From contig JACPUE010000023.1 of NCBI GenBank assembly GCA_016192425.1, forward strand, positions 1 through 64,000: DNA of 64,000 nucleotides, written 5' to 3'. This document shows positions 12,643 through 61,376 of the stretch, piece after piece. The translations under genes and the position numbers were made by a program. The DNA comes from Burkholderiales bacterium. Its GTDB lineage: Bacteria; Pseudomonadota; Gammaproteobacteria; Burkholderiales; Burkholderiaceae_C. Numbering within the stretch: position 1 is the stretch's first letter; the number at the start of each line of letters is the position of its first letter. The notes under the pieces were generated by a model. That model made no database searches. It saw only the letters and a list, made by a program, of their open reading frames with translations, and was not told the origin of the DNA.

Positions 12643-13560
12643 TCAAAGATCGTCGCGCAATGCGTAGGGCAGGGTGCCCAGGGTCAGTGCAGGGCCATCG
12701 GGCGCACCTGCATGCAGGCCGCCTGCTTCGGCTGCCGTGATCTGCAGCGAGACGATGGCGTCCCACCCACCGCCCGGTGCCGCGGCCACCTGCGCTACGG
12801 TGCCGCAGGCCTGCTCGGCATCCTGGGGGCTGAAGACCTCGGCGCCCACGCTCAGGGGCGCATCGGCATGGGCAATGTAGGCGCGGCGCTTGATGGCCCC
12901 CCGGAACTGGCTGCGCGCCACGACCTCCTGGCCGGGGTAGCAGCCTTTCTTGAAGCTCACACCATCGACCGATTCGTAGTTGAGCATCTGCGGCACAAAG
13001 GCATCGGCCAGCGGTGCGCTCAGCGTGGCCACGCCGCTGTGCACCTCGCCCCAGGCCCACAGTGCGGGGTCGAGCGGGGCGCCTGCGGGCAGGGGCTCGG
13101 TAGCCGGGGCCACCCACAGCGCCCGCGGCTGGCCTGCTGCGGGTGGCAGGTGCACCACGCTTGCAGAGCCAAAATCGGCCTTTATCCACATGGGCTGTGC
13201 GCTACCAGCTATCGAATTAATAGCATCACCGGCCAGGCCTGCCATGCGCAGTTCGGCGCTGGCGTCGCTCAGGCGCACCTTGGCGCGCAGCACGAACATG
13301 GACAGGCGCTTGAGCGTCGCAGCCAGCAGGTCGCGCTGGCAGACCAGCCAGACCTCGGTGGGGCTGCGCTTGAAGCCGATGAAGCTCGCCTGCATGCGGC
13401 CCTTGGCCGATAGGAAGGCGCACAGGCGCGCGTGCGCCAAGTCAAGCAGGGCAAAGTCGTGGGTGAGCTGGCCGTGGAGGAATTTGGCGGCGTCTTCGCC
13501 TTCAGCGCGAATGACGCCCAGGTTTTCAAGTGGGGCTACGCCCTGGAGCATCGCAGTCAT
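12643..13560 (-). CDS. ygfZ: YgfZ/GcvT-like folate-binding Fe-S maintenance protein
   Basis: This cytoplasmic protein (305 aa) of the YgfZ family binds tetrahydrofolate. In E. coli it is needed for the activity of certain Fe-S enzymes such as MiaB. The diagnostic motif KKGCYPGQEVVARS with its conserved Cys is present at about residues 200-213. Residues about 113-132 (starting AINSIAGSA) are encoded by an in-frame copy of a dispersed repeat, an apparent insertion in an otherwise conserved fold. The gene is convergent with the sensor kinase and divergent from mltG. The ATG at 13560 is followed by a second one three codons later. Confidence 0.88.
   Translation of the reverse strand: MTAMLQGVAPLENLGVIRAEGEDAAKFLHGQLTHDFALLDLAHARLCAFLSAKGRMQASFIGFKRSPTEVWLVCQRDLLAATLKRLSMFVLRAKVRLSDASAELRMAGLAGDAINSIAGSAQPMWIKADFGSASVVHLPPAAGQPRALWVAPATEPLPAGAPLDPALWAWGEVHSGVATLSAPLADAFVPQMLNYESVDGVSFKKGCYPGQEVVARSQFRGAIKRRAYIAHADAPLSVGAEVFSPQDAEQACGTVAQVAAAPGGGWDAIVSLQITAAEAGGLHAGAPDGPALTLGTLPYALRDDL
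13165..13224 (-). repeat. Dispersed two-hairpin repeat, copy inside ygfZ
   Basis: On the minus strand the copy begins with GCTATTAATTCGATAGC, a stem-loop of GCTAT and ATAGC. It continues TGGTAGCGC and then a tail ATGTGGATAAAGGCCGATTT, which aligns with the tail of the intergenic copy at 40091. It is read in frame as part of ygfZ with no stop. Boundaries are approximate to about five bases. Confidence 0.65.
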
Positions 13561-13607
13561 CCCTCCATTATGATGCCCGGTTCTTCACTCCTACTGGCAT
13601 CAGGGTT

Positions 13608-14591
13608 GTGCGCCGACTCCTTCTTCTGGCATTGATGGTGGCCGCTGCGCTGGGCGCTGCAGCATGGGCCTGGCTGCATGCGCCGCTGCCCATGGGCAGC
13701 GAGCCGCTGGAGCTGGCCATCGAGCCCGGCACGCCGCCGCGCACCATTGCGCGCGACATCGAGCGCGCAGGGGTGCGTGTGGATGCGCGTGTGCTGTTCG
13801 CCTGGTTCCGCCTCTCGGGCAAGGTGCGCGAGATCCGCGCGGGCAACTACGAAATCCCGCCCGGCACCACGCCCATCACGCTGCTCGACAAGCTGGTGCG
13901 GGGCGAGGAATCGCTGCGCAGCCTCACGCTGGTGGAGGGCTGGAACTTCCGCCAGATGCGCGCCGCGCTGGCGCGCGAGGAGCTGCGCCACGACACCGCC
14001 AGCCTGCCGGACGCCGAGATCATGCAGCAGCTCGGCCGCCCCGGCGTGCCCCCCGAGGGGCGCTTCTTCCCCGACACCTATGCCTATGGCAAAGGCTCCA
14101 GCGACCTGGCCGTGCTGCGCCGCGCCCTGCATGCCATGGACCGCCACCTGGAGGCCGCCTGGACGCAGCGCAGCGCCGATACGCCACTCAAGAGTGCCGA
14201 CGAAGCGCTCATCCTGGCCAGCATCGTCGAAAAGGAAACCGGCCAGGCGGCCGACCGGCCGCAGATCGCCGGGGTGTTTGCCAACCGCCTGCGCACCGGC
14301 ATGCTGCTGCAGACCGACCCGACCGTCATCTACGGCCTGGGCGAGAAGTTCGACGGTAACCTGCGCAAGCGCGACCTGCAGACCGACACGCCCTGGAACA
14401 CCTACACCCGCCCCGGCCTGCCGCCCACGCCCATCGCCATGCCGGGCAAGGCCGCGCTCATGGCGGCGGTACAGCCCCAGGCGACGCGGGCCCTGTACTT
14501 TGTGGCGCGCGGCGACGGCAGCAGCCAGTTCAGCGCCACGCTCGAAGAACACAACCGCGCCGTCCAGCGCTACCAACTGCAAAAGAAATGA
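13608..14591 (+). CDS. mltG: Endolytic transglycosylase MltG
   Basis: This inner-membrane lytic transglycosylase cuts nascent peptidoglycan strands and is thought to end glycan chain growth. The 327-aa form starts at GTG 13608, which places the single N-terminal helix ([20 protein letters not shown]) right after two arginines. A start further upstream would run into ygfZ. The YceG domain contains [12 protein letters not shown] and the catalytic motif [10 protein letters not shown] with its Glu at about residue 212. The C-terminal part has the typical [11 protein letters not shown] segment. Its stop overlaps the tmk start by four bases, so it heads the operon mltG-tmk-holB-pilZ. Confidence 0.9.
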
Positions 14592-15265
14592 CCCCAGGCC
14601 TGTTCATCACCTTCGAGGGCATCGATGGCGCGGGCAAGTCCTCGCACATCGAGGCGCTGGCCGCTGCCCTGCGCAGTGCGGGGCGCAGCGTTACCGTCAC
14701 GCGCGAACCGGGCGGCACCCCGCTGGCCGAAAAGCTGCGCACGCTGCTGCTGGGTGAGCCCATGGATGCGCTCACCGAGGCACTGCTGGTGTTTGCCGGG
14801 CGGCGCGACCACCTGCGCCAGGTCATCGAGCCTGCGCTGGCACGGGGCGAGGCGGTGCTGTGCGACCGCTACACCGACGCCACCTTTGCCTACCAGGGCG
14901 GCGGGCGCGGGTTCGATTGGGATCTGCTATCAATTTTGGAGCGCATGGCGCAGACGGGGCTTGCCATGCAGCCTGATTTGATGCGTGAACCCGACCTGAC
15001 CTTCTGGTTCGACCTGCCCCCGGCCACGGCGGCGCAGCGCCTGGCCACGGCCCGCATGCCCGACCGGTTCGAGTCGCAGGACGAAGCCTTTTTCACGCGT
15101 GTGGCCCAGGGCTATGCCCGCCGCGCCCAGGCGGCACCGCAGCGTTTCGCCCGCCTGGACGCCGCCCAGCCCCGCGAGGCCGTGTGGGCCCAGTTGTTGC
15201 AGGTGCTGGCGCAGCGCGGCTGGCTGGCGCAGGCCGCCGTGCAGCCACCGGAGGGCAGGGCATGA
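14588..15265 (+). CDS. tmk: Thymidylate kinase
   Basis: This enzyme phosphorylates dTMP to dTDP with ATP, an essential step in dTTP supply (225 aa). The P-loop is [12 protein letters not shown] (residues 8-19). The DRY motif ([16 protein letters not shown]) and the lid region [13 protein letters not shown] follow. Between GGGRGFD and [10 protein letters not shown] lies a stretch of about 20 residues (113-132) read from a likely copy of the dispersed repeat. It lengthens the loop compared with the E. coli enzyme. Start and stop overlap mltG and holB by four bases each, indicating translational coupling. Confidence 0.95.
14926..14983 (+). repeat. Dispersed repeat, diverged copy inside tmk
   Basis: The segment starts GCTATCAATTTTGGAGC, runs through GCGC and GGGGC blocks and ends CCTGATTTGAT. 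This matches the start, spacing and tail of the other copies, although the internal ATAGCTGCTAGCGC core is degraded. It is markedly more AT-rich at its edge than the flanking tmk sequence. It is the weakest of the seven copies. Confidence 0.4.
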
Positions 15266-60415: not shown

Positions 60416-61312
60416 CTATGTCAATACGTGCAGCGGGATGTCCTCGGCGCGGGCCAGGGCTTCGAGCTGGGCGCGGGTCTGGCCTTGCAGGAAGCGGGCG
60501 ATGGCTTCGTGGGTGCTGGCGGCGCGCAGGTGTTCTGCGTCGCCCTGCGCTGCCAGGCCCGCGGCGGCGCAGAGGCGGGCGGCGAAGTGCGGCTCCAGCG
60601 CGGCCACGGCCACGCGGCCATCCTGGCAGGGGTAGATGCGGTAGCCCGCATGGGCGCCGCCCACGTCGCCCTGCGGTGTGGTCAGGCCCCAGTGCAGCGG
60701 CAGGGCCAGCCACTGTGCGGCTTCGGCCAGGCCCACTTCAATGCACACGCCCGCGCCTTGCTGGCTGCGCGCCAGCAGCGCCTGCAGTACGGCTTCGCTG
60801 GCCACCAGTGCGCCCGCCATGTCGGCAAACAGGGTGGGCGGCACCTGCAGGCCTGCCAGCAGCCCGGCTTCGGCCTGGTAGGTGAGGTCGTGGCCGGGCT
60901 CTTCGGCACGTTCGCCCAGCGCACCGACGATGCGCACCAGCGACAGCCGCGGGTAGCGCGCCTGCAGCGCTTCCCAGCCCAGCCCCAGCTTGGCCAGGGC
61001 CGAGGGGCGGAAGGACGTGATCAGCACATCGGTGCGCGCCAGTTCGGCGTGCAGTGCGGCCTGGCCTTCGTCGGTCTTGAGGTGGGCGTGCAGCACGCGC
61101 ACGCCTTGGTGCAGGCCTGCATAGGCAGTGGGGCTGTAGATGCCCATGGGGTCGGCGCTGGCATGGCCCGGCGCGGGGGGCGGCTCCAGCTTGGTGCATT
61201 CGGCGCCCATGCGCGCGCAGCGCAGCAGGGCGGCAGGGCCGGGCAGGTTGAGCGCCAGGCTCAGGACGCGGGTGCCTTGCAGGGGCGTGGGGTGGGCTGC
61301 AGTGTCGGGCAT
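60416..61312 (-). CDS. CaiB/BaiF CoA-transferase family protein, short
   Basis: This 298-aa member of family III CoA-transferases also resembles alpha-methylacyl-CoA racemases. Visible motifs are the start GTRVLSLALNLPGPAALLR, KLEPP, the region GHDLTYQAEAGLLAGL and the conserved Asp in LFADMAGALVASEA. It is clearly shorter than the usual 360-400 aa, because the C-terminal part is reduced. The start is uncertain. ATG 61312 lacks a ribosome site and sits against a dispersed repeat, while ATG 61366 would add 18 hydrophobic residues read wholly from that repeat. Substrate unknown. Confidence 0.7.
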   Translation of the reverse strand: MPDTAAHPTPLQGTRVLSLALNLPGPAALLRCARMGAECTKLEPPPAPGHASADPMGIYSPTAYAGLHQGVRVLHAHLKTDEGQAALHAELARTDVLITSFRPSALAKLGLGWEALQARYPRLSLVRIVGALGERAEEPGHDLTYQAEAGLLAGLQVPPTLFADMAGALVASEAVLQALLARSQQGAGVCIEVGLAEAAQWLALPLHWGLTTPQGDVGGAHAGYRIYPCQDGRVAVAALEPHFAARLCAAAGLAAQGDAEHLRAASTHEAIARFLQGQTRAQLEALARAEDIPLHVLT

Positions 61313-61315
61313 AAT

Positions 61316-61376
61316 TGCTATAAAAATAATAGCTGCTAGCGCTTGATGGACGGGCGCTGTAGCCATATTTTGCTCA
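61316..61376 (+). repeat. Dispersed two-hairpin repeat, reference copy
   Basis: This is the cleanest copy: TGCTATAAAAATAATAGC (stem GCTAT with ATAGC), TGCTAGCGCTTGATGGAC, then GGGCGCTGTAGCC and an AT-rich tail. AGCGC and GCGCT make the second stem. It forms the whole region between the tyrB terminator and the start of the CoA-transferase gene, so the promoter or leader of that gene must lie in or very near it. Confidence 0.75.

What the first reader, a model, noticed from the sequence alone, without database searches (positions are those of the whole stretch)
13165..61376. A roughly 60-nt two-hairpin repeat occurs seven times, three times inside coding genes
Copies at 13165-13224, 14926-14983, two in 25596-25700, 40091-40153, 46612-46675 and 61316-61376 share the order GCTAT-loop-ATAGC, TGCTAGCGC-like core, GCGC block and AT-rich tail. 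Seven copies in 64 kb, with some inside conserved genes, is like Rickettsia palindromic elements. It suggests a family that can spread into proteins without breaking them. The alignment was made by eye.
Basis: partly seen in the sequence, partly recalled or inferred. Interest (0 to 1): 0.8.

Follow-up and report, generated by a model that had tools for sequence, protein, structure and literature searches.

The report
Frozen REP-like hairpins, some inside proteins
Hundreds of copies of a short hairpin-forming DNA repeat sit in these bacterial genomes, a minority inside working proteins, and the copies compared between related species have kept their place and hairpin while their other bases drifted, which suggests the repeats are useful rather than junk.

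Summary
The repeat is real: a ~66-nt family with at least 133 copies in the genome (reversed-pattern control 0), about one per 8 kb at relaxed sensitivity (26 in 200 kb). Three lie inside genes, as claimed. It is patchy in the family: 105 of 399 genomes, 0-554 copies. By anatomy it is REP-like: ATAG directly 5' of a hairpin (CTNGCGCTT-N7-AAGCGCTRG).

The surprise is evolutionary. In the genus sample I saw no clean empty site outside one genome without pattern copies. At 19 orthologous intervals 17 still score as the repeat, against at most 7 in 50 neutral simulations at 75% identity, though loops have drifted to about 55% identity. The closest two of 86 own copies share 58 of 68 bases, so recent copying is not seen. 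Pairing shows no dependence on transcription direction, which favours a DNA-level role. RAYT mobilisation is possible but weakly supported. The kind is known (REPs, including in-frame ones); I found this family in no paper listed by my searches.

The parts
40088..40155 (+). element copy, between genes, overlaps the 3' end of gene 40132-41742 (-) and lies just upstream of gene 38512-40074 (-)
   Evidence: 76.6 bits, E 3.5e-22; present in all 8 relatives in which the locus was found
61313..61380 (+). element copy between genes 60416-61312 (-) and 61436-62632 (-)
   Evidence: 61.2 bits; a copy lies 31-66 bp from the same right flank in G409 and G225, left flank not mapped
46608..46675 (+). element copy inside a coding gene, in frame (codons start at model position 2)
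   Evidence: 26.5 bits; segment present in 7 of 8 relatives, missing in G354
45757..48204 (+). host gene: radical SAM protein (YgiQ-like, name recalled)
   Evidence: PF08497, PF04055, PF11842; gene limits
13162..13228 (-). element copy inside a coding gene, in frame
   Evidence: 29.0 bits, E 8.9e-7; the same gene of an Ottowia MAG carries a copy at the same site (L068:3731-3798, 28.6 bits; gene)
12643..13551 (-). host gene: folate-binding GCV_T-family protein (YgfZ-like, name recalled)
   Evidence: PF01571, E 2.4e-6
14922..14989 (+). decayed element copy inside a coding gene
   Evidence: 11.6 bits, not significant alone; Ottowia MAG copy at the same site 34.5 bits; 8 extra residues against the best PDB match, thymidylate kinase 3v9p
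14588..15265 (+). host gene: thymidylate kinase
   Evidence: PF02223, E 4.6e-46
25593..25660 (+). left copy of an inverted, tail-to-tail pair between genes 23935-25578 (-) and 25712-26869 (-)
   Evidence: 15.0 bits, E 0.032; relatives L219 and L221 score 17.5 and 18.3 bits there
25640..25703 (-). right copy of the inverted pair (limits by eye, overlaps the left copy)
   Evidence: sequence; not found by the model in the window; relative L222 scores 14.8 bits there

Best explanation
A REP-like family of Comamonadaceae. The working unit is the tetranucleotide ATAG (GTAG in a few) directly 5' of one imperfect hairpin, CTNGCGCTT-N7-AAGCGCTRG, then AGGC and an AT-rich tail. It spread long ago, before this genus diverged and, at two sites, apparently before it split from Ottowia, possibly as a non-autonomous single-stranded element of a RAYT-type (HUH) transposase (inferred, weakly supported). 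In this genus no movement was seen. Sampled copies stay at the same place in the same orientation, and the ATAG-hairpin is kept by purifying selection while the rest drifts (shown on a sample). The hairpin seems to matter as DNA, for instance as a protein-binding or single-strand hairpin site near gene ends, because orientation and mismatch type do not follow transcription (indirect evidence). Copies that once landed in a tolerated reading frame of a gene stayed as a protein segment.
For: Abundance with zero control; patchy family distribution, 0-554 copies. 303 copies between or over the ends of genes: co-directional 92 + 120, convergent 77, divergent 14. Hairpin 2 in 302 distinct sequences: 42 both-side changes against 28.8 +/- 4.5 in shuffles (2 of 500 as high); hairpin 1: 11 against 10.5. 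ATAG 302 and GTAG 18 of 337. Same-orientation retention in 164 of 209 comparisons, the 4 opposite ones all at the inverted pair. Constraint: 17 of 19 orthologous intervals at 12 bits or more (14 of 15 non-coding), median 24.0 (own copies 25.4), against mean 3.4 and maximum 7 of 19 under neutral drift at 75% identity; 4-fold sites 0.75 and 0.70 identical, ortholog loops 0.54-0.55, stem 0.76, ATAGC 0.92. Inner-stem G.T to A.C mismatches 19:9 in sense-transcribed, 25:14 in antisense, 20:3 in convergent copies.
Against: RAYT link is weak. At an 8-bit cut a copy lies just downstream of the RAYT gene in 11 of 32 copy-bearing loci and upstream in 7, against 73 and 51 of 552 other genes; at 12 bits 7 and 6 against 71 and 49; but the RAYT's own neighbours show 5 of 36 and 10 of 49 at 8 bits, so the upstream excess vanishes. 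Genomes without the element also carry Y1_Tnp genes (19 of 22), and this RAYT is bracketed by GGGGTCAG inverted repeats. The constraint test rests on 13 of 49 own sites (3 coding) and two relatives. The structure count includes about a dozen opposite-strand shadow rows, its sliding control at -1 gives as many both-side pairs (8, with 20 cells against 26), and 7 of the 26 both-side cells belong to hairpin 1. Near-equal orientation does not exclude a strand-symmetric RNA role. The seed pattern contains ATAGC, which favours finding copies that keep it.
Confidence: 0.55

Rival explanations
1. RNA-level element: the hairpin is transcribed and protects or processes mRNA 3' ends, or acts as terminator; selection is on RNA folding.
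For: Location near gene ends and rarity in divergent spacers; stem covariation; G.T tolerated more than A.C overall.
Against: Sense and antisense copies are about equally common (92 and 120) with a similar G.T to A.C ratio (19:9 and 25:14), whereas an RNA role predicts the ratio to flip in antisense copies. No intrinsic terminator was called at the two elements in the 10 kb scanned. No Rfam match at E up to 10 for one copy.
Confidence: 0.2
2. Concerted evolution: old copies are overwritten by other copies through gene conversion, which keeps the consensus without selection on each copy.
For: Ortholog loops of G000-G409 (0.49 and 0.43) are less alike than 4-fold sites (0.75) and close to paralog loops (0.47 and 0.36). 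Within G000 the stem is slightly more alike (0.77) than between genomes (0.71-0.72), though the G000 set was picked partly by score.
Against: Within G225 and G409 copies are no more alike (stem 0.69, 0.65) than between genomes. In some pairs the tail keeps orthology. Only 66 nt are shared, so homologous exchange should be rare (inference).
Confidence: 0.13
3. Rickettsia-palindromic-element-like selfish DNA that is still spreading into genes and spacers.
For: In-frame copies in 21 protein groups, mostly in one frame per orientation; large copy-number differences between genera.
Against: No clean empty site seen in the genus outside G354, no near-identical copies among 86, ortholog stems as alike as paralog stems.
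Confidence: 0.08
4. MITE: a deletion derivative of a DDE insertion sequence with terminal inverted repeats and target duplications.
For: Small, many copies, non-coding; the two halves form an imperfect palindrome.
Against: No clear terminal inverted repeats in the profile; no target duplication visible at the one comparable site, the radical SAM gene of G354. No parent insertion sequence was sought.
Confidence: 0.04

Closest known systems
GTAG/CGTC REP superfamilies with intragenic members (PMC3733652; sections 15 and 16 and passages read)
   Same: Tetranucleotide next to one hairpin, high copy number, mostly between co-directional or convergent genes close to 3' ends, some inserted in frame in genes (that paper names TruB in three species; here TruB in G409).
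   Different: Tag is ATAG (302 of 337), not GTAG or CGTC; unit is ~66 nt, REPs 20-40; Acidovorax, Comamonas, Delftia, Polaromonas and Burkholderia do not occur in that paper's main text.
REPIN-RAYT populations (PMC8049555; abstract and passages read)
   Same: Population of short hairpin repeats that persists for long; a RAYT gene in most genomes looked at.
   Different: REPINs are described there as replicating from a master sequence; here no close copies among 86 own ones, mostly single units (11 close pairs), and selection seems to act site by site.
Rickettsia palindromic elements (from passages of PMC3733652 and recall)
   Same: In-frame insertion in unrelated conserved proteins.
   Different: Other host group, mostly extragenic here; sequence relation not tested.
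BRE, Beta-proteobacterial repeat element (PMC3110155; passages and section 14 read)
   Same: Repeat in Bordetella and Comamonadaceae, some copies inside coding sequences.
   Different: Full-length copies 75-91 bp, 69% GC in Bordetella, at most 29 per genome; this element is ~66 nt, mean 43% GC in 86 own copies, 0-554 per genome. Sequences not compared directly.
TIR-flanked RAYT-like transposases (TIRYT, PMC3733652 section 16)
   Same: Many of the RAYT genes printed have AATTGGGGTCAG-type inverted repeats fitting GGGGWSAS near them.
   Different: In part of the genomes the element lies between that gene and the repeat on its 3' side; a functional link is not shown.

Membership tests
GTAG or CGTC REP | unpaired GTAG or CGTC tetranucleotide at one end of the hairpin | tested here: not met
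   ATAG in 302, GTAG in 18 of 337 copies; so it is called REP-like, not a GTAG REP
GTAG or CGTC REP | one palindromic stem supported in many copies | tested here: met
   hairpin 2: 92% paired in 148 rows; 42 both-side changes against 28.8 +/- 4.5 in 302 sequences
GTAG or CGTC REP | high copy, mainly between co-directional and convergent genes | tested here: met
   92 + 120 co-directional, 77 convergent, 14 divergent
GTAG REP (REPtron) | RAYT gene flanked by the repeat | tested here: inconclusive
   8-bit cut: 11 and 7 of 32; other genes 73 and 51 of 552; RAYT neighbours 5 of 36 and 10 of 49
GTAG REP | processing of the repeat as single-stranded DNA by TnpA-REP | not testable with these tools
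   needs protein and DNA assays
REPIN | two inverted REPs as the unit | tested here: not met
   11 close pairs (5 tail-to-tail, 3 head-to-head, 3 direct) beside 457 places, duplicates of overlapping loci not removed from the 457
Rickettsia palindromic element | in-frame insertion into unrelated protein genes | tested here: met
   34 copies in 21 protein groups; radical SAM segment missing in G354
Rickettsia palindromic element | sequence relation to a known RPE family | not tested
   no RPE sequence was fetched
MITE | terminal inverted repeats | tested here: not met
   profile of 30 copies, judged by eye
MITE | target-site duplication | tested here: inconclusive
   one empty site only, flanks too diverged
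BRE | length 75-91 bp and about 69% GC | tested here: not met
   ~66 nt, mean GC 43%, range 31-59% in 86 own copies; BRE values from PMC3110155
described Rfam family | match to a covariance model | tested here: not met
   window at gathering cut-off: only a tRNA; one copy at E up to 10: none

The most novel reading that the evidence does not exclude
The family is held together by purifying selection on each copy rather than by copying: several hundred ATAG-hairpins at fixed places form one genome-wide, DNA-level system that reads the same strand whatever the direction of transcription, and lineages that lose the unknown reader lose their copies.
Probability: 0.4. Interest if true: 0.8.

Novelty: new variant of a known kind. 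Interest (0 to 1): 0.6.

Why it matters
Why REP-type repeats persist for millions of years is open; a published model says persistence needs a small benefit per copy (PMC8049555, abstract and passages). Here copies look old, immobile and numerous in one genus, so benefit per copy could be tested site by site without transposition as a confounder. It also gives a set of protein segments born from a hairpin repeat, in genes such as thymidylate kinase, MutL, TruB, DapF and XseA.

Tried and rejected
RNA-level selection: tested by mismatch type against transcription direction; no difference seen. Replichore strand bias, expected for recent single-strand transposition: none among the 150 copies listed for G225 (166 of 300 permutations at least as high). 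Intrinsic terminators: none called at the two elements in window 38000-48000. Simple RAYT presence as the explanation: Y1_Tnp hits in 41 of 46 genomes (22 of 24 with the element, 19 of 22 without); the own genome had none over the cut-off, though an orthologous gene was then found at G000:C2. A third hairpin in the tail (AGGC/GCYT) was seen by eye and not tested. Concerted evolution by within-genome similarity: little sign. Phages: no match; plasmids: 5 records. Text search for six 14-16-nt core words: no paper. Searches for Comamonadaceae repeats, REPs or RAYTs listed no paper that I recognised as describing this family; only 7 to 20 titles per search were seen (none, where nothing matched), only open-licence PMC papers are held, and one listed paper describes a different repeat (BRE). 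Rows dropped: one search used 178 of 208 places (locus ends and duplicates dropped); one search used 337 places (ungapped, 18 bits or more, 300 bp from locus ends, both neighbours called unless intragenic; orthologous copies from related genomes are kept, so they are not independent); could map 13 of 49 own sites. One search includes false orthologies through one repeated flank and is not used for the constraint figures.
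Full report
Observation. A pattern search of the genome (3,667,790 bases, 68 contigs; the window is C21:1-64000) gave 133 matches with up to 3 mismatches and none for the reversed pattern; in the window three matches against none in 100 shuffles, with a slightly looser pattern. Thirty genome copies, oriented, define an element of about 66 nt with clear edges. The model hit all 150 candidates that the genome search scores. In 200 of the 207 kb of contig C8, 26 places pass E 0.01 (27 by profile), so about 475 per genome by extrapolation.

Where it occurs. With the same pattern, 105 of 399 genomes of the family match, with 0 to 554 copies per genome and at most one control match per strand. 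The five genomes of the window's genus in that call have 133, 220, 237, 172 and 0. The window's genus is probably Simplicispira, because a contig of relative G402 has the same length (980,535) as a Simplicispira hankyongi contig; this is an inference.

Anatomy. In 148 distinct rows from named genomes hairpin 2 is paired in 92% of cells and hairpin 1 in 72%, with three of its five pairs broken in about 40%. Both-side changes over the whole structure were 26 against 14.3 +/- 3.1 in shuffles; 7 of the 26 lie in hairpin 1, about a dozen rows are opposite-strand shadows of other rows, and the control slid by -1 has 20 such cells. I therefore repeated the count on 302 distinct non-coding copies without shadows: hairpin 2 has 42 both-side cells against 28.8 +/- 4.5 (2 of 500 shuffles as high), hairpin 1 has 11 against 10.5 (244 of 500). 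So hairpin 2 is supported and hairpin 1 is better read as a conserved ATAGC word whose 5' partner drifts. Shuffles ignore relatedness. ATAG stands directly 5' of the stem as GTAG does in REPs; the tag is ATAG in 302 and GTAG in 18 of 337 copies. The seed pattern itself contains ATAGC.

Context. With a home-made gene caller, 178 distinct places fall 110 between genes, 39 over a gene's 3' end, 12 over a 5' end and 17 inside genes. In the larger set of 337, 303 lie between or over the ends of genes: 92 and 120 between co-directional genes with the element in sense or antisense, 77 convergent, 14 divergent; 34 are inside genes. Inner-stem G.T and A.C mismatches are 19:9 in sense, 25:14 in antisense, 20:3 in convergent and 2:1 in divergent copies. 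If the RNA hairpin were selected, antisense copies should favour A.C. They do not, although the numbers are small and copies are related.

Inside proteins. The 34 intragenic copies form 21 protein groups. Same-strand copies are read from model position 2 in 13 of 14, opposite-strand copies from reverse position 3 in 14 of 20; by group, 7 and 11 of the 21 contain these frames. They are stop-free in 41% and 35% of non-coding copies; reverse position 2 is as open (39%) but was used by 3 copies. Proteins with a copy, named by Pfam or NCBIfam, include thymidylate kinase, a GCV_T-family protein, a radical SAM protein, MutL, enoyl-CoA hydratase, a penicillin-binding transglycosylase/transpeptidase, DapF, GluQRS, XseA, TruB, NAD synthetase, MTA/SAH nucleosidase, and, below the curated cut-off, KDO transferase and RlmI. 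Net insertions were smaller than the element where I compared: 8 residues in thymidylate kinase against 3v9p, 10 in enoyl-CoA hydratase against 4k2n. In the radical SAM gene the segment is present in seven of eight relatives and missing in G354. In the GCV_T gene G354 has the same length without a recognisable element, and its thymidylate kinase segment is two codons longer than the window's; this may be a fossil of a lost copy.

Fixed positions. At 40088 the element is present in all eight relatives in which the locus was found. In 209 comparisons of 68 elements with both flanks mapped, 164 are present in the same orientation, 4 opposite (all at the inverted pair) and 41 not detected at 12 bits. 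Of the 41, 12 are G354, 16 the GCV_T gene, 6 the inverted pair, 2 a decayed copy in G225, 2 a site whose stem changed to CGCCC/GGGCG in the own genome, 2 another coding site in G409 and 1 a coding site with the same length in the own genome. I saw no clean empty site outside G354. The comparisons are not independent: the ungapped pairs form 23 sites.

Constraint. Of 49 own places in 400 kb, 13 could be mapped by both flanks to the stretches held of G409 or G225, giving 19 comparisons; 10 of the sites are non-coding. Without any selection for element presence, 17 of 19 intervals score 12 bits or more (14 of 15 non-coding), median 24.0; the own copies' median is 25.4. Mutating the own copies at 75% identity, the 4-fold-site value for G409, leaves on average 3.4 and at most 7 of 19; at 70% (the G225 value) 1.6 and at most 5 (50 replicates each). 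At 21 non-coding ortholog pairs ATAGC is 0.92 identical, AGGC 0.85, the 5' arm 0.78, stem 2 0.76, tail 0.66, loops 0.55 and 0.54; these pairs required detection in both genomes. Paralogs are about equally alike within and between genomes, with G000 slightly higher (stem 0.77 against 0.71-0.72), and its copies were picked partly by score. Among 86 own places the closest pair shares 58 of 68 bases. One site shows compensatory stem changes between three species.

How it may work. Shown on samples: fixed place and orientation, constraint on ATAG and hairpin, no dependence on transcription direction in the mismatch test. Inferred: old spread by a single-strand transposase, present DNA-level role. 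RAYT genes in copy-bearing genomes have a copy just downstream in 11 of 32 and upstream in 7 of 32 at 8 bits (7 and 6 at 12 bits), against 73 and 51 of 552 other genes, but the RAYT's own neighbours have 5 of 36 and 10 of 49. In several the downstream copy ends at the conserved TTTGAT/GTGTCCC junction. The loci are related by descent, so this is a lead only. Genomes without the element also carry Y1_Tnp genes.

Comparison. In-frame REPs, their spacing and their RAYTs are known (PMC3733652, sections 15 and 16 read). REPIN populations persist for millions of years, and a model needs a benefit per copy (PMC8049555, passages). BRE of Bordetella differs in length and GC (PMC3110155, passages and section 14). 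I therefore call this a new variant of a known kind: REP-like, ATAG-tagged, with site-by-site selection as the new point.

Noticed in passing
L184-L187, between the orthologs of genes 38512-40074 and 40132-41742: Four relatives carry roughly 0.2-0.9 kb of extra spacer with GGGTCGGAGCACGAG and GACCCCAATGCC repeats; G141 (L187) has a long tandem array of GCCTGCGCCGCGCCCAAT units.
   Followed up: no
L207, L208, L211 (near the 61313 site): In G409, G407 and G411 about 1-2 kb of extra DNA lies beside this site; the window genome lacks it.
   Followed up: no
RAYT loci printed: Many RAYT genes have AATTGGGGTCAGA-type inverted repeats nearby that fit the GGGGWSAS motif of TIR-flanked RAYTs; the 3' side shares TTTGATGTGTCCC-like sequence also in some genomes without the element (L247, L260).
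   Followed up: partly
G015 (L228): 18 Y1_Tnp matches, several near-identical by score and some in two pieces, in a genome with 524 element matches.
   Followed up: no
G287 and G383 matches: Genome-specific stem variants: GAGCTT/AAGCTC in G287 (compensatory) and AAGCGGTAGAG in G383.
   Followed up: no
window 23719-23850: tRNA gene followed by a CCCTGCTAT...ATAGCAGGG terminator-like hairpin with a T run, which mimics the element's first hairpin.
   Followed up: yes
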